From NCBI RefSeq assembly GCF_014695575.1, contig NZ_JACJOO010000087.1, forward strand, positions 62,001 to 126,000: a stretch of 64,000 bases of DNA, given 5' to 3'. The notes beneath the pieces were generated by a model that saw only the letters and a program-made list of their open reading frames with translations, ran no database searches and was not told where the DNA came from. Below, in pieces: positions 55,925 through 63,019 of the stretch (within the stretch, counting starts at the first letter, position 1; every line of letters begins with the position of its first letter). The position numbers were made by a program, and so were the translations under genes. Origin of the DNA: Leptolyngbya sp. FACHB-8. Its GTDB lineage: Bacteria; Cyanobacteriota; Cyanobacteriia; Elainellales; Elainellaceae.

Positions 55925-57088
55925 ATGGATATTGCAGAACGCATGAGTCGGTTAGGAACAGAATCCGCCTTTGAGGTCTTTGCAAAAGCCAAAAAACTCG
56001 AAGCTCAAGGAAAAAGTGTTATCCACCTGGAAATTGGTCAGCCTGATTTTCCAACTCCTGCAAATATCTGCGAAGCGGCCTGTCAAGCTATGCGAGAGGG
56101 TTATACGGGTTATGCTCCAGCCGCAGGGCTCTTGGAATTCCGGCAAGTCATTGCCGAATACATTCAGCAAACCCGAGGCATTGAGGTTCATCCCGATGAA
56201 GTGGTGGTGACGCCGGGAGCAAAACCGATTATCTTTTTCACACTACTGGCATTGGTTAACGATGGGGATGAAGTGATTTATCCCAATCCAGGTTTTCCTG
56301 TTTACGAATCGGTCATTAATTTTATTGGTGCTAAACCCGTTCCTCTGGAATTACGTGAAGAGGTAGATTTCCGTTTCCGCATTGATGATCTGATTCATGC
56401 CATTTCTGATCGAACCAAGCTGCTCATCCTTAATTCCCCCCAAAATCCAACAGGCGGAATTTTGACCGTTGAAGAATTGGAGGCGATCGCCTACCTCGCC
56501 AAGAAACACGATTTCTATGTCCTTTCCGATGAGATTTACTCCCGCATCATCTACGAGGCGGAGCACCAGAGTATCATCCAATTTCCGGGCATGAAAGACC
56601 GCACGATTCTGCTAGATGGGCATTCCAAAACCTACGCCATGACAGGCTGGCGGCTCGGGTATGGCATCGCTCCTAAACCTCTGGCAGAACGGTTGGTGCA
56701 ACTGATGATCAATTCCAACTCCTGCACCTGTTCTTTTACCCAAATGGCCGGAATAGAGGCCCTCACTGGCCCCCAAACCGCTGTTGACGACATGGTGGCC
56801 GAATTTCGCCAACGGCGAGATGTCATGGTAGACGGATTGAATGCGATCGCCGGAATCCAATGCCGTCAACCGGCCGGAGCCTTTTATGTGTTCCCAAATG
56901 TCAAACAGCTTCCCCTTCCCTGTGATGTTCTGGCTGACCATCTGTTAGAAAACGCAGGCGTATCCGTTTTATCGGGAACCGCCTTTGGTAAATTGGGGGA
57001 TGGGTATTTGCGGCTTTCCTATGCCAACTCGTTGGCGAATATTCGGGAGGCGATCGCCCGTATACAAGCTGCTGTCAGTCATTTATGA
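55925..57088 (+). CDS. Class I/II PLP aminotransferase
   Basis: 387 residues from ATG 55925. PLP Lys235 in DGHSKTYAMTGWRLGYGIAP; other blocks SPQNPTGGI, VLSDEIYSRIIYE and YPNPGFPVYESVI. Belongs to the aspartate/aromatic aminotransferase subgroup I-gamma. It follows the hydroxyacid dehydrogenase by 51 bp and overlaps the next gene by 4 bp. It could form 4-hydroxyphenylpyruvate from tyrosine for HPPD; specificity cannot be read from sequence. Confidence 0.93.
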   Translation: MDIAERMSRLGTESAFEVFAKAKKLEAQGKSVIHLEIGQPDFPTPANICEAACQAMREGYTGYAPAAGLLEFRQVIAEYIQQTRGIEVHPDEVVVTPGAKPIIFFTLLALVNDGDEVIYPNPGFPVYESVINFIGAKPVPLELREEVDFRFRIDDLIHAISDRTKLLILNSPQNPTGGILTVEELEAIAYLAKKHDFYVLSDEIYSRIIYEAEHQSIIQFPGMKDRTILLDGHSKTYAMTGWRLGYGIAPKPLAERLVQLMINSNSCTCSFTQMAGIEALTGPQTAVDDMVAEFRQRRDVMVDGLNAIAGIQCRQPAGAFYVFPNVKQLPLPCDVLADHLLENAGVSVLSGTAFGKLGDGYLRLSYANSLANIREAIARIQAAVSHL

Positions 57089-57567
57089 ACCCACCGGACA
57101 ACGAAACGCTGGACCTCCAGAGGGATATTCTTTCAGGTCGCACCTTCTCCATGGCAGAAGTCATTGGTCGGGAGGGGACATCCTTTATGAAAGGTGAGTC
57201 GCCTGTTCCCAGATTGGTGCAGGTGTTGACGGAGATTAACCTGTTTATTCAACAACATCTGGTCGATATATCAGGTATTGTCCAGGCTATATTATTTGCC
57301 TGGGTTAAATCTGATGAGGCCCGTGTGAGCCGATATGTCAAATCCCCATTAGTCGCTCTTCAAGAGATTGTTGAGAATATTACGACCGATGCCGATACGC
57401 TCTATGAGTTTGTGCGCCAGGTGGATTGCAAATGGGGCCAGATGAACAATGAACGGCCTTACTTTCAAAAGCCTGGGCAACCTCCCCACCCGGACGATGA
57501 ATTTACCCATGAATCGGTACAGATTCAGTTAAGCCAGTTTTTGTCTGTTCTAAAATGCCATTTGTAA
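57085..57567 (+). CDS. Unknown protein (160 aa) coupled to the aminotransferase
   Basis: ATG overlaps the aminotransferase stop (ATGA), so translation is coupled. Soluble and mostly helical: LVQVLTEINLFIQQHLVDIS, GIVQAILFAWVKSDEARVSR, PLVALQEIVENITTDADTLY, with a Pro-rich stretch KPGQPPHPDDEF and a final helix SVQIQLSQFLSVLKCHL. No domain recognised. The conserved-looking Ser/Thr-rich start (SGRTFSMAEVIGREGTSFMK) is reminiscent of no family I know. Confidence 0.7.
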   Translation: MNPPDNETLDLQRDILSGRTFSMAEVIGREGTSFMKGESPVPRLVQVLTEINLFIQQHLVDISGIVQAILFAWVKSDEARVSRYVKSPLVALQEIVENITTDADTLYEFVRQVDCKWGQMNNERPYFQKPGQPPHPDDEFTHESVQIQLSQFLSVLKCHL

Positions 57568-57742: not shown

Positions 57743-59401
57743 ATGAAGCGCTTTACCCAACTGTTTCAGGAAATTGACGCCACCACCTCCACCAACGAGA
57801 AGGTGCAGGCAATCCAAAACTATTTCACTGAGGAAGAGCCTGCCAATGCCGTTTGGGCGCTTTATCTACTGTTGGGCAAAACTCGTAAACGGCTGATTAC
57901 ATCTCGGGTACTGCGAGATGTGTTCCTAAGTATTTCAGATATTCCCGAATGGCTGTTTGAAGATTGCTATGCCCATGTGGGTGACTCGGCTGAGGTTATT
58001 TCCCTGCTGATGCAAGATACCCCCATTGCAGAGGCATCTGGCTCTGACATTGCCCTATCCACCTGGATGGAAACCATTCTTCCCCAGGCCAAAAAGGTTG
58101 AGTCCGAAGCTGAGTTGTATCAACTGGTAATTTCCTGGTGGTCGGCTCTCACGCCATTCGAGGTTTTTATCCTCAACAAGTTGCTGACGGGTGCCTTTCG
58201 TGTGGGAGCTTCGGCTAAGCTCGTAATTAAAGGCCTCTCTGCAGCGTGTGGCGTCTCCGAACCAGAGCTGGCTCATCGGCTCATGGGAGATTTTGAACCA
58301 ACGGCCGCTTTTTATGAACACCTGATTGGTCATGATCAGGCCCAAATCGTGCCCAGCCGCCCGTATCCCTTCTTTCTGGCATCGCCACTGGAAGAAGAGC
58401 GCTTTCAAACAGAAGACTTGTCGCGCTGGCAGGCAGAATGGAAATGGGATGGCATTCGGGCACAGGTCATTCGCCGGGCCGATGAAGTGTTCATCTGGTC
58501 ACGGGGCGAAGATTTGATTACGCCACAATTTCCCGAGATTGCAACAGCATTTCAGACAATGCCCAATGGAACGGTGCTGGATGGCGAGATCGTTTGTTGG
58601 GAGGGCGGTTCTCCGGAAAGCGGCACCGAACGCCCGATGAGCTTTAATGCCTTGCAAAAACGCCTGGGGCGTAAGCGTGTGACGCAGAAGGTGATGGATG
58701 AAAATCCTGCTCACTTTATTGCCTATGACATGCTAGAGCAAAATGGGCAGGATATTCGGGACAAGACTTTGAGCGATCGCCGCCAATGTCTTCTCAGTTT
58801 GCTGGAACAACATTCCAGTACGCGCATTACCCCTTCAACGGTGCTCACGTTTAACACGTGGGAAGACTTGAAAGCGTTGCGGGAGCGATCGCGAGATTAT
58901 GATGCTGAAGGACTGGTCTTGAAAGCTTTGGATAGCCCCTACCTGGTTGGGCGGAAGCGGGGATCCTGGTGGAAATTCAAAGTTGATCCAATGACCCTGG
59001 ATGCCGTGTTGATTTACGCTCAGGCAGGCAGCGGCAAGCGAGCCAACCTTTTTACAGATTATACCTTCGCACTCTGGAAAGGAGATGAGCTTGTGCCCTT
59101 TGCTAAAGCCTATTCAGGGTTAGACAATGCTGAAATTGATGCGCTCGATCGGTGGATTCGCAAACACACGATAGAAAAATTTGGTCCGGTTCGTTCGGTA
59201 GAACCCATTCATGTGTTTGAAATTGGGTTTGAAGGAATTTCCCTCTCGAAGCGACACAAGTCGGGGATTGCGGTACGGTTCCCACGTATTCTGCGGTGGC
59301 GAACAGACAAACCTGCTCAGGAAGCCGATACTGTCGAAACTGCCATGACGTTACTCGATAACGCCGTGGAGGAGAAACTAGAGCAAGATAATGAGCAGTA
59401 A
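57743..59401 (+). CDS. ATP-dependent DNA ligase (bacterial LigB/ligase-associated type)
   Basis: 552 residues, CGGAGC before the ATG. The N-terminal ~200 residues are the helical DNA-binding domain (FTEEEPANAVWALYLLLGKT, FILNKLLTGAFRVGASAKLV). The adenylation domain has the nucleotide-accepting Lys234 in EWKWDGIRAQ, VFIWSRGEDLITPQFPEI, VLDGEIVCWE, EGLVLKALDSPYLVGRKRG and WWKFKVDPMTLDAVLIYAQA; the OB domain follows. This type is often grouped with a DEXH helicase and an exonuclease in DNA-damage operons, but neither is here. Its 3' end overlaps a small gene on the other strand by 24 bp. Confidence 0.95.
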   Translation: MKRFTQLFQEIDATTSTNEKVQAIQNYFTEEEPANAVWALYLLLGKTRKRLITSRVLRDVFLSISDIPEWLFEDCYAHVGDSAEVISLLMQDTPIAEASGSDIALSTWMETILPQAKKVESEAELYQLVISWWSALTPFEVFILNKLLTGAFRVGASAKLVIKGLSAACGVSEPELAHRLMGDFEPTAAFYEHLIGHDQAQIVPSRPYPFFLASPLEEERFQTEDLSRWQAEWKWDGIRAQVIRRADEVFIWSRGEDLITPQFPEIATAFQTMPNGTVLDGEIVCWEGGSPESGTERPMSFNALQKRLGRKRVTQKVMDENPAHFIAYDMLEQNGQDIRDKTLSDRRQCLLSLLEQHSSTRITPSTVLTFNTWEDLKALRERSRDYDAEGLVLKALDSPYLVGRKRGSWWKFKVDPMTLDAVLIYAQAGSGKRANLFTDYTFALWKGDELVPFAKAYSGLDNAEIDALDRWIRKHTIEKFGPVRSVEPIHVFEIGFEGISLSKRHKSGIAVRFPRILRWRTDKPAQEADTVETAMTLLDNAVEEKLEQDNEQ

Positions 59402-59470
59402 GAAGCCAACGATGGCACCGCTAGATTGAATGAAGAGAGGAAGCGGTGAATCTTTCAGGGAGTCTTGCAT
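59378..59470 (-). CDS. Tiny hydrophobic peptide, copy A (30 aa)
   Basis: ATG 59470 follows the strong ribosome site CCGGAGGTTCCC. The peptide has a short polar start (MQDSLK), a conserved DSPLPLF, then one hydrophobic helix (AIVGFLLLIILL) ending at the stop. It matches copy B: both have DSPLPLF, QSS, AIV and FLLL in the same order. The stop is inside the last codons of the ligase gene on the opposite strand. A membrane peptide, type I toxin-like in size and shape; no function can be assigned. Confidence 0.62.
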   Translation of the reverse strand: MQDSLKDSPLPLFIQSSGAIVGFLLLIILL

Positions 59471-59810
59471 GGGAACCTCCGGAAGGGGACTTAGGTTTGG
59501 GGCTAGAACTGAACTGAGAGGTAACAGAGCATTTGTGCAGGGGAGATGTTTTCGGTTGGCCTAACACACGGCCTGAAGTGAAGTACTGAGTTAGAGCAAG
59601 CAAACTAGAAGTAAGAAACTAACAATGGCGAAGCTAGATTGCATGAAGAGAGGAAGTGGCGAGTCTTGCGGAGACTGTTGTACTTGCAGGGAACGTTGCA
59701 TAGAAACCTCGTGAAGCGGATGTAGGTTGGACTTGATGCGAACAATGAGATAACAGACAGTTTGTGGAGGGGAGATGTCTTTTGTTGATCTAACACTACC
59801 TACAATCGAC
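59400..59810 (-). repeat. Tandem duplication of about 200 bp, each unit holding a leader and a tiny gene
   Basis: Unit A (about 59400-59600) and unit B (about 59600-59810) align along their length. Besides the peptide genes, the upstream leader is conserved: GTGTTAG, then CATCTCCCCT, then CTGTTA, in this order about 100-130 nt before each ATG. Conserved leader and conserved peptide with diverged spacers suggest selection on both. Confidence 0.7.
59591..59701 (-). CDS. Tiny hydrophobic peptide, copy B (36 aa)
   Basis: ATG 59701 with GAGG five nt upstream. N-terminus MQRSLQVQQSPQ, then the shared DSPLPLF, QSS and a hydrophobic end (AIVSFLLLVCLL) with a Cys in place of Ile. Six residues longer than copy A in the polar part. 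The differences between the copies are mostly conservative or in the N-terminus, which favours real coding. Too short for ordinary gene finders. Confidence 0.62.
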   Translation of the reverse strand: MQRSLQVQQSPQDSPLPLFMQSSFAIVSFLLLVCLL

Positions 59811-60093
59811 CGGAATGTAATTCCGTAAGTTCCTCTAACTTTTCTTGATTTCCTCAGAGGGTCTAGTAATATTGCTGAAAGATATGGATGAGTTGAGGCC
59901 CAAATGCTTTATTCATAGGGATATGCCCACCGTTGTAATACTTATTGCTCCTGTATTCTTTCTGGATATTTTATTCAGAATCCATAGGGCTTTTCCAGTT
60001 AACATCTACCCTGCTTAAACCGCCAAGATTTGATCAGAATTGTGTGTAGCGCTACACCCATAGTTGGGTTCGCTAGCCAGATTTAGTATAAAA
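59811..60093. other. Upstream region of the ureidoglycolate lyase gene with a 14-nt palindrome
   Basis: AT-rich, no coding frame. A perfect palindrome GTGTAGCGCTACAC lies at 60044-60057, about 37 bp before the ATG, a position suited to a dimeric repressor or activator. It does not match the NtcA pattern GTA-N8-TAC. Confidence 0.4.
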
Positions 60094-60624
60094 ATGAACA
60101 CTGCTATCCCTACTACTATGAACTTCACATCGACCATTCGACCCATTCAGGCTCAATGGATTACAGCTGAGAATTTCCGTCCCTATGGCCAGATGATTGA
60201 AGCCAGTGAAGATGGGGCACTGTACGACGCCGAAGATGCCCAGTTGCAACTGGATCAAGGAACTCCCCGGTTTTACATCATGCGGCTTCAATCCCGTGGG
60301 CGTCGCTTTTCGCGCATTACCCGGCATGTGAAATGTACTCAGTGTTTGGGTTCTCTGGGGGGGCAGGAATGGTGGTTGGGAGTGGCTGCACCAACTGAAT
60401 CTGCCTGTCCATCTGTGGAGGATATTGTAGTGTTCCGTATCCCTGGAACCTGCTTTATTAAACTGAATCTGGGAACCTGGCATGCAGGGCCTTATTTTGA
60501 TCAACCCAGTGTCGATTTTTATAATCTTGAGCTTGCCGATACCAATATCACAGACCACGAAACCTGTGATCTTTTAGAAGCCTATGGTTTGACCTTTGAG
60601 ATTGATGTTGCCGATGTGGCATAA
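60094..60624 (+). CDS. allA: Ureidoglycolate lyase (AllA family)
   Basis: 176 residues from ATG 60094 (ATG 60118 is possible). Cupin-like barrel: IRPIQAQWITAENFRPYGQM, then the conserved SRITRHVKCTQCLGSLGGQE with the active His/Lys, GVAAPTESACPSVEDIVVFR, and LNLGTWHAGPYFDQPSVDFY containing the second His. AllA splits ureidoglycolate into glyoxylate and urea, the last step of allantoin breakdown. No allantoicase is in the window; the hydantoinase-like gene at 32950 could be an allantoinase. Confidence 0.88.
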   Translation: MNTAIPTTMNFTSTIRPIQAQWITAENFRPYGQMIEASEDGALYDAEDAQLQLDQGTPRFYIMRLQSRGRRFSRITRHVKCTQCLGSLGGQEWWLGVAAPTESACPSVEDIVVFRIPGTCFIKLNLGTWHAGPYFDQPSVDFYNLELADTNITDHETCDLLEAYGLTFEIDVADVA

Positions 60625-61227: not shown

Positions 61228-61555
61228 ATCTCCTAAGAAGACTATGGAACCCCCAAATCTTATACCCGATCTTGTACCAAAACGCTTCTGAGTTTTGGCT
61301 TTAGAAAAGTGCAAGAGGGTATATCGAGTTTTACCCGCCCTACTCAACAACACTGTGTAGGGCGATTACGTTTCAAACCTCTGGATGGGATGAGGTGAAA
61401 GAGGCGCGAAGTGCCCCTTCCACCTCATCCCATCCAGAGGCTCAGAACACTCACTGTAGGTCCTTAAATTTTTGAATATATGGGGCTTTAACCCCGACTC
61501 CACTTTTTGTAAAAGTCGCTATAGTGAGGTGCTCTGGTACTCTTTTCCCGCTGTC
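61228..61555. other. Intergenic region with a 20-bp hairpin
   Basis: Divergent region upstream of both neighbours. A perfect 20-bp stem CCTCTGGATGGGATGAGGTG (61378-61397 with 61421-61440) holds an apex GGCGCGAAGTGCC. No gene seen. Confidence 0.6.
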
Positions 61556-63019
61556 ATGAAACGACGTTCTGTGCTTTTTCTCCTCGGTTTGGGTTGCTGG
61601 CTGCTCAGTGCTCCGGCTTATGCAGCTATTACAGTTGAACCTGATGCCCTGGTGATCAGCACAACGGAGAATCGGGGTGTGACCCGCACCCTTAACCTGA
61701 GCAGCGATGTAGACGTACGGCGATTGGCGATCGCGACTTCAGATTTAGAGCGCACCGATAACAGGGCGGTTCTGCCGGCCAGAGCTATTCAACTGCAACA
61801 ACCGCCAACCTCACTACAAGCAGGCGAGCTTGTTCAAGTTCCCATTACCTTGGAACCCTCTGAAGCCAGGGTAAGTGGGGAATTTACAGGGGTCGTATGG
61901 GTGACCTATGACGGGACTCGCCAAACTATTCCCATTACCCTGCGAACAAAAGATCCAATTGGACTACCTCTGCTGGTGCTGCTAGCGGGAGTGGCTCTGG
62001 GAAGTACCTTAGCCTGGTACCGGACACGGGGCTTACCGCAAGATGAACTGGTGGTGCGGATGGGGCAACTGCGAACCCAGATGCGTACGGATGCTGAACT
62101 AGAAACTGTTGGGCAGCGCTTTCGGCAGCGAATTGAGGGAGATCTGATGGATGTGGAGTCGATGCTGGGGGTGCGCAACTGGGAAGCCGCCACAACCCAT
62201 CTGGAGTTAGCAGAATCCACCTGGAAGCGGTGGCGTAAGGGGCGGGAAGATTGGCTCCGCCAAATTCAATATTTGCAGATGTTACAACAACAGGTGAAGC
62301 AGTCCGCTATGGTGCAGACGGACTATGGCAATCAAGTGCAGGCTGGGCTAGAAGACATAGAACGCCGCATGGCAGAGTTTGATACACCGCAAGTATTACG
62401 AGAAACCTTAATTCCGCTACGGGATGGCATCAATCGTTTCCAATCAGGGGAAACGTTGATGATGCATATGGCGCAGTTGGAAACCCGTATAAAGGATGAG
62501 GAGCGCCGTCGCTATTGGGCCGCTGAACGTGATCTGTTGGAAGCGGGACTCAACGAGTTGAATCCCCAGAATCCGGATGCTTATGAGCAGTGGAAAAACA
62601 GCTTTAAAGAGAAACAACAGGCAATGCAGCAGGATCTCTACGGACAAGAGAATGCAGAATTACGAGGGGGAGAATTGGAGGTGGTAGCGCGAGGAGATTT
62701 GGCTCGGATGCAATCCCTGGGATTGCCCCTTGTGCCGGGGGTAGGTTCCTACTCGGGTGAAGGGGCTGCGCGTTCAGCGCGATCGCGTCTTCGCATTTTT
62801 CGCCTGGTGAGTCAGGGGGTGGCGATCGCTTTCCTTTCCTGGGCCGGTCTAAATGAGCTATACGAAGGGAATCCCATCTTTGGGGCGTCCCCCGTGGGAG
62901 ATTACCTGGCTCTGGCCGCCTGGGGCTTTGGGGCAGAAGTTACCCGTGATTCTATTGTGAAGGCGGTGCAAGAGCTGAACGGCAGTGCTAAAAGTCGAGA
63001 TCAAATGCCAATGACTTAA
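61556..63019 (+). CDS. Secreted/membrane protein with signal peptide, Ig-like domain and coiled coil (487 aa)
   Basis: From ATG 61556 (MKRRSVLFLLGLGCWLLSAP, cleavage near AYA). Residues ~25-135 form a beta-rich domain of the kind found before membrane anchors (ISTTENRGVTRTLNLSSDVD, VQVPITLEPSEARVSGEFTG). A membrane helix follows at ~137-160 (GLPLLVLLAGVALGSTLAWY), then ~250 residues of charged coiled coil (IEGDLMDVESMLGVRNWEAA), and a C-terminal hydrophobic part (FRLVSQGVAIAFLSWAGLNE). The beta domain should face the periplasm and the coil the cytoplasm. Unknown function; next gene is a caspase-like protease. Confidence 0.75.
   Translation: MKRRSVLFLLGLGCWLLSAPAYAAITVEPDALVISTTENRGVTRTLNLSSDVDVRRLAIATSDLERTDNRAVLPARAIQLQQPPTSLQAGELVQVPITLEPSEARVSGEFTGVVWVTYDGTRQTIPITLRTKDPIGLPLLVLLAGVALGSTLAWYRTRGLPQDELVVRMGQLRTQMRTDAELETVGQRFRQRIEGDLMDVESMLGVRNWEAATTHLELAESTWKRWRKGREDWLRQIQYLQMLQQQVKQSAMVQTDYGNQVQAGLEDIERRMAEFDTPQVLRETLIPLRDGINRFQSGETLMMHMAQLETRIKDEERRRYWAAERDLLEAGLNELNPQNPDAYEQWKNSFKEKQQAMQQDLYGQENAELRGGELEVVARGDLARMQSLGLPLVPGVGSYSGEGAARSARSRLRIFRLVSQGVAIAFLSWAGLNELYEGNPIFGASPVGDYLALAAWGFGAEVTRDSIVKAVQELNGSAKSRDQMPMT

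What the first reader, a model, noticed from the sequence alone, without database searches (positions are those of the whole stretch)
59378..59810. Tandem pair of unannotated 30- and 36-residue membrane peptide genes
Two adjacent units of about 200 bp on the minus strand each encode a tiny peptide with good ribosome sites (GGAGG and GAGG). The peptides share DSPLPLF, QSS, AIV and FLLL, end in a hydrophobic helix, and differ mainly by conservative changes. A leader of ~100-130 nt with conserved blocks (GTGTTAG, CATCTCCCCT, CTGTTA) precedes each. This is the architecture of duplicated type I toxins (Ldr, Ibs, Fst types), which also come in tandem, but the sequence matches none I know. The long conserved leader could be the target of an antisense RNA. 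Copy A ends inside the ligase gene on the other strand.
Basis: partly seen in the sequence, partly recalled or inferred. Interest (0 to 1): 0.72.

Follow-up and report, generated by a model that had tools for sequence, protein, structure and literature searches.

The report
Duplicated cyanobacterial membrane microprotein gene
Two side-by-side tiny genes in a cyanobacterium encode real, selection-maintained membrane peptides of a previously unnamed, patchily distributed cyanobacterial family that looks more like a regulated membrane helper protein than the self-poisoning toxin first suggested.

Summary
Two tandem ORFs on the minus strand, 59591-59701 (36 aa) and 59378-59470 (30 aa), each have ATG and a ribosome site and share 21 of 30 residues. 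They belong to a real family. Profile searches found 62 of 390 cyanobacterial genomes with matches. I curated 67 members, mostly 27-58 aa (64 start with ATG, 66 have a Shine-Dalgarno match), with core F-x-[QE]-[ST]...GFLLL and pN/pS 0.04-0.8. Tandem copies also occur in other lineages.

The type I toxin interpretation is not supported, though not excluded. The leaders fold no better than shuffles. Antisense promoters are not enriched. No relative was found on plasmids or in viruses. Most members are near-neutral and end flush with the helix. They do not resemble MsoT1, the reported cyanobacterial type I candidate.

Best reading: a stand-alone, single-helix membrane microprotein, probably an accessory or regulatory partner of a larger membrane complex, recently duplicated here.

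Unplanned result: about a third of relatives (not the window's pair) carry upstream arrays of TCAC repeated every 22 bp. The same arrays precede other small unknown proteins, including one locus in this genome, which points to an unnamed regulon.

The parts
59591..59701 (-). Copy B, first in transcription order: 36-aa microprotein MQRSLQVQQSPQDSPLPLFMQSSFAIVSFLLLVCLL
   Evidence: ORF with ATG and GAGG; family profile E 3.5e-23 with the two-copy profile in its own genome; one helix, residues 18-35, in the AlphaFold2 model
59378..59470 (-). Copy A: 30-aa microprotein MQDSLKDSPLPLFIQSSGAIVGFLLLIILL; its end overlaps the ligase gene end by 24 nt
   Evidence: ORF with ATG and GGAGG; 21 of 30 residues identical to copy B; pN/pS to copy B 0.42
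59702..59797 (-). Upstream region (promoter and 5' leader, boundaries unknown) of copy B, with blocks GTGTTAG, CATCTCCCCT, CTGTTA
   Evidence: 70/95 identical to the upstream region of copy A; no RNA structure beyond shuffles (z +1.47)
59471..59567 (-). Upstream region of copy A with the same blocks
   Evidence: no RNA structure beyond shuffles (z +0.85)
59572..59582 (-). TTCACTTCAGG box upstream of copy A, like the last repeat of the TCAC arrays of relatives (ATCACTTCAGGAAT)
   Evidence: single match only, no 22-bp array in the window; functional meaning uncertain

Best explanation
The locus is a tandem duplication of a stand-alone gene for a single-pass membrane microprotein of a cyanobacterial family not described in the resources searched. 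SHOWN: real frames, purifying selection, a variable polar N-terminal tail, a motif F-x-[QE]-[ST] at the start of one helix of about 18 residues that in most members ends at or near the C-terminus, no fixed operon partner, and operator-like repeat arrays upstream of about a third of relatives. PREDICTED: one helix in the structural model. INFERRED: the peptide inserts tail-in, its conserved polar pair and GFLLL face pack against a larger membrane complex and tune its assembly or activity, and the dose is set by regulated transcription and, here, by gene duplication. The partner is unknown; photosynthetic or respiratory membrane complexes are the natural candidates.
For: Family of 67 curated members, 64 ATG, 66 with SD. 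pN/pS 0.04-0.5 in 19 of 21 pairs. Core motif conserved over several cyanobacterial families. Helix 18-35 with pLDDT above 90 in its second half and a low-confidence tail. Scattered, monocistronic, chromosomal loci without a shared neighbour between families. Conserved promoter elements in family f16 and TCAC arrays in 22 of 67 members, which fit condition-dependent expression. Precedent: small single-helix cyanobacterial proteins that act on photosynthetic electron flow (SliP4, PMC12850537).
Against: No interaction partner or localisation is known. No match to any solved membrane-complex subunit. The distribution is patchy (62 of 390 genomes), which is unusual for a core subunit. The window's own pair lacks the TCAC array. 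Nothing here measures expression.
Confidence: 0.5

Rival explanations
1. Type I toxin-antitoxin: the peptides are membrane-damaging toxins kept silent by an antisense RNA and duplicated in tandem like Ldr or Ibs.
For: Size, single hydrophobic helix, stand-alone genes, tandem copies in several lineages (L083, L090, the window), patchy distribution. A type I candidate has been reported in a cyanobacterium (PMC12390103).
Against: Leaders unstructured. Antisense promoter-like sites 13 seen against 24.4 in shuffles. No relatives on plasmids, phages or viral contigs. 48 of 67 members end 0-1 residues after the helix, and 41 of 67 have net charge 0 or -1. Many relatives have regulated-looking promoter arrays.
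Confidence: 0.2
2. Free-standing stress or signalling peptide: the helix itself modulates the membrane, or is exported, without a fixed protein partner.
For: Fast-evolving tails, variable C-terminal extensions in one family, several copies per genome in some strains.
Against: The same polar motif at the helix start is kept over large distances, which suggests a specific contact.
Confidence: 0.2
3. The frames are incidental and the conserved thing is a regulatory RNA or promoter.
For: The upstream regions of the two copies are as similar as their frames.
Against: The frame is conserved across genera with an excess of synonymous change, while upstream DNA is poorly conserved against the congener. 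No Rfam match.
Confidence: 0.04

Closest known systems
Small single-helix proteins of cyanobacteria: SliP4 (37 aa) and Norf4 (31 aa)
   Same: Cyanobacterial, 30-40 aa, single predicted helix, own genes (PMC5126843, PMC12850537)
   Different: The start of Norf4 deduced from its published primer (MTADQLL) does not resemble this family, and Norf4 is reported as extremely conserved and present in 51 genomes, unlike this variable, patchy family (PMC5126843)
MsoT1/MsoA1 of Microcystis, candidate cyanobacterial type I toxin-antitoxin
   Same: Small hydrophobic cyanobacterial protein with several relatives (PMC12390103)
   Different: MsoT1 has 63 residues, pI 11.2 and two predicted membrane helices; this family has one helix, is mostly 27-58 aa and near neutral
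Type I toxins Ldr, Ibs, Fst
   Same: Tiny hydrophobic peptides, tandem copies (from general knowledge)
   Different: No Rfam or Pfam match, unstructured leaders, no plasmid or viral relatives found
Low-molecular-mass single-helix subunits of photosystems, cytochrome b6f and NDH-1
   Same: Length and single helix; genes often stand alone (general knowledge)
   Different: No sequence match to any solved chain; not universal in cyanobacteria

Membership tests
Type I toxin-antitoxin | Peptide under about 60 aa with one hydrophobic helix | tested here: met
   Lengths and hydropathy of 67 members; helix 18-35
Type I toxin-antitoxin | Antisense RNA antitoxin | tested here: inconclusive
   Antisense promoter-like sites not enriched (13 against 24.4 in shuffles; one site only, on the sense strand and upstream, in 59300-60150); transcripts cannot be seen here
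Type I toxin-antitoxin | Growth inhibition on expression | not testable with these tools
   Needs an expression test in a laboratory host
Type I toxin-antitoxin | Structured mRNA leader controlling translation (typical, not universal) | tested here: not met
   z +0.85, +1.47 and +0.39
Type I toxin-antitoxin | Sequence relation to a catalogued toxin family | tested here: not met
   Rfam 0 matches, Pfam and NCBIfam no significant match, PADLOC none
Cyanobacterial regulatory or accessory membrane microprotein | Translated, selected single-helix protein | tested here: met
   Purifying selection and ribosome sites
Cyanobacterial regulatory or accessory membrane microprotein | Binding to a membrane complex | not testable with these tools
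   Needs co-purification
Photosystem, b6f or NDH-1 small subunit | Sequence relation to a solved subunit | tested here: not met
   No relevant PDB chain up to E 10
MsoT1 family | About 63 aa, strongly basic, two predicted helices | tested here: not met
   against PMC12390103

The most novel reading that the evidence does not exclude
The family is one output of an undescribed cyanobacterial regulon defined by arrays of TCAC every 22 bp (two DNA turns) that switches on a set of microproteins; the membrane microprotein then retunes a bioenergetic complex under one specific condition. In the window's lineage the array is absent from these genes and the gene was duplicated with a different promoter.
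Probability: 0.3. Interest if true: 0.68.

Novelty: new member of a known kind. Interest (0 to 1): 0.45.

Why it matters
It adds a sizeable, selection-maintained family to the poorly charted cyanobacterial micro-proteome. It ties many of its members to a distinctive operator array shared with other unknown small proteins, which makes both the regulator and the microprotein function directly testable. It also shows that tandem duplication of a tiny hydrophobic ORF is not enough to call a type I toxin.

Tried and rejected
DNA search for the locus gave only the congener, 75% over 69 bases. Pfam, NCBIfam, PHROGs, PADLOC, Rfam and PDB gave nothing informative. A shared operon partner was looked for and not found; only within-family synteny exists. 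RNA leader structure: none in the window. In nine genes of one family (f16) a short 5'-terminal stem has 3 of 6 pairs with compensatory change, but the covariation term is only -0.09, so I do not claim it. HLR1 and LexA sites were not enriched upstream of the family; NtcA-like GTAN8TAC occurred in 5 of 66 against 1.25 expected, too weak to pursue. Matches of a 48-aa frame without ribosome site (L103, L105) and a 129-aa frame (L094) were dropped as false. A dnaK hit of the array pattern (L215) lies in CTCACC-type simple sequence and was not counted.

Full report
CHECK OF THE OBSERVATION. Both frames are present as described: 59591-59701 (-), MQRSLQVQQSPQDSPLPLFMQSSFAIVSFLLLVCLL, and 59378-59470 (-), MQDSLKDSPLPLFIQSSGAIVGFLLLIILL. 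They have GAGG and GGAGG ribosome sites, 21 of 30 aligned residues identical and upstream regions 70/95 identical. Copy A overlaps the last 24 nt of an ATP-dependent DNA ligase gene on the other strand; on the other side lies a ureidoglycolate lyase-like gene.

IT IS A REAL FAMILY. A profile of the two peptides finds an ortholog in the only congener held (G001, MLRSHQDTTSLPLFMESSLTIVGFLFLVCLL), between relatives of the same two neighbours (ligase 77% identical), and members in several other genera of the family. Iterating gave 62 of 390 class genomes at E<=0.01; a few of the weakest of these may be chance. A curated set of 67 members has 64 ATG starts and 66 with a Shine-Dalgarno match; lengths are mostly 27-58 aa, with extremes of 25 and 76. 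The core is L-F-x-[QE]-[ST]-x(4)-G-F-L-L-L, with variation. In 21 pairs of orthologs or paralogs pN/pS is 0.04-0.80, below 0.5 in 19; the two higher values are within a young tandem family with a C-terminal extension.

THE TANDEM PAIR. dS between the two window copies is 0.66, while synonymous sites against the congener's single copy are saturated, so the duplication is younger than that split. This explains much of the leader similarity; against the congener's leader little aligns. Tandem copies exist in other lineages: L083 (start to start 343 bp), L090 (306 bp), and a divergent pair in L092. G171, G218 and G299 hold three or more copies.

TOXIN OR NOT. For a type I toxin: size, one helix, stand-alone loci, tandem copies, patchy distribution. 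Against: leaders fold no better than shuffles; sigma-70-like promoters on the antisense strand are not enriched (13 seen, 24.4 in shuffles); no relatives in 72,556 plasmid records, 50,697 phage records (the single hit, E 5 inside a terminase gene, is chance) or viral contigs; 48 of 67 members end 0-1 residues after the helix and 41 of 67 carry net charge 0 or -1. The reported cyanobacterial type I candidate, MsoT1, is 63 aa, strongly basic and predicted to have two helices (PMC12390103). I keep type I at 0.2 because toxicity and antisense RNA cannot be tested here.

STRUCTURE AND LIKELY MECHANISM. AlphaFold2 on 12 family members gives one helix, residues 18-35, with a low-confidence tail. The F-x-[QE]-[ST] motif sits at the start of the helix. 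The most economical reading is a single-pass microprotein whose tail lies in the cytoplasm (inference from the placement of the few basic residues) and whose helix packs against a larger membrane protein. No solved subunit matches and no neighbour is conserved between families, so the partner is unknown. [quoted passage not shown] no full sequence of either was available here for a direct test.

AN UNPLANNED RESULT: 22-BP OPERATOR ARRAYS. Upstream of 22 of 67 members there are two or more TCAC words at 11-44 bp spacing on an 11-bp grid (allowing 21 and 23 bp). Pairs exactly 22 bp apart number 37 against 0.31 expected from other DNA of the same loci, and 44 bp apart 18 against 0.23. Up to five copies occur in a row. 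In family f16 the last copy reads ATCACTTCAGGAAT and is followed after 13 bp by GATGATGAT and then TATAG, which looks like a -10 element. A search of 20 genomes for four TCAC at 22-bp spacing gave sites in 12 genomes and none for the pattern read backwards; three copies in 8 genomes gave sites in all, clearly above the backward control. Downstream genes include this family, a family of about 60-90 aa (ITxADR...EExxxIDR...RGxxxVVD, no Pfam match), DUF4278, DUF1830 and DUF2949 proteins and an Npun_R2479-type HD protein. In the window's own genome a five-copy array precedes a member of the ITxADR family (G000:C83:281730-281821). The window's two peptide genes do not carry an array; copy A has a single TTCACTTCAGG. 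The spacing is what an OmpR- or LytTR-type response regulator could read; this is inference. Searches of the paper library found no description of it.

VERDICT. Observation confirmed; the toxin interpretation is not supported by what can be tested. This is an unannotated family of single-helix cyanobacterial microproteins, duplicated here: a new member of a known kind. The regulatory array found on the way may be more novel than the peptides themselves.

Noticed in passing
G000:C83:281730-281821 (own genome, outside the window); also loci L177-L202 and L203-L246: Arrays of TCAC repeated every 22 bp (up to five or six copies) lie upstream of small proteins of unknown function in at least 12 of 20 cyanobacterial genomes searched, with no match for the reversed control pattern; this looks like an undescribed regulon.
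   Followed up: partly
L178, L179, L193, L197, L202, L212, L230, L238: A family of about 60-90 aa soluble-looking proteins (core ITxADR...LxxEExxxIDRLxxxxRGxxxVVDELS) sits directly behind these arrays and has no Pfam match.
   Followed up: partly
upstream of family genes in L079, L082, L088, L090, L095, L109, L110, L170: Conserved promoter-like string ATCACTTC[AC]GGAA-N13-GATGAT...TATAG in one cyanobacterial family, with a short 5'-terminal stem in the predicted mRNA that shows a few compensatory changes.
   Followed up: partly
window 61472-63019 (+) and 57085-57567 (+): Neighbouring 515-aa and 160-aa ORFs have no Pfam match at E 0.001.
   Followed up: no
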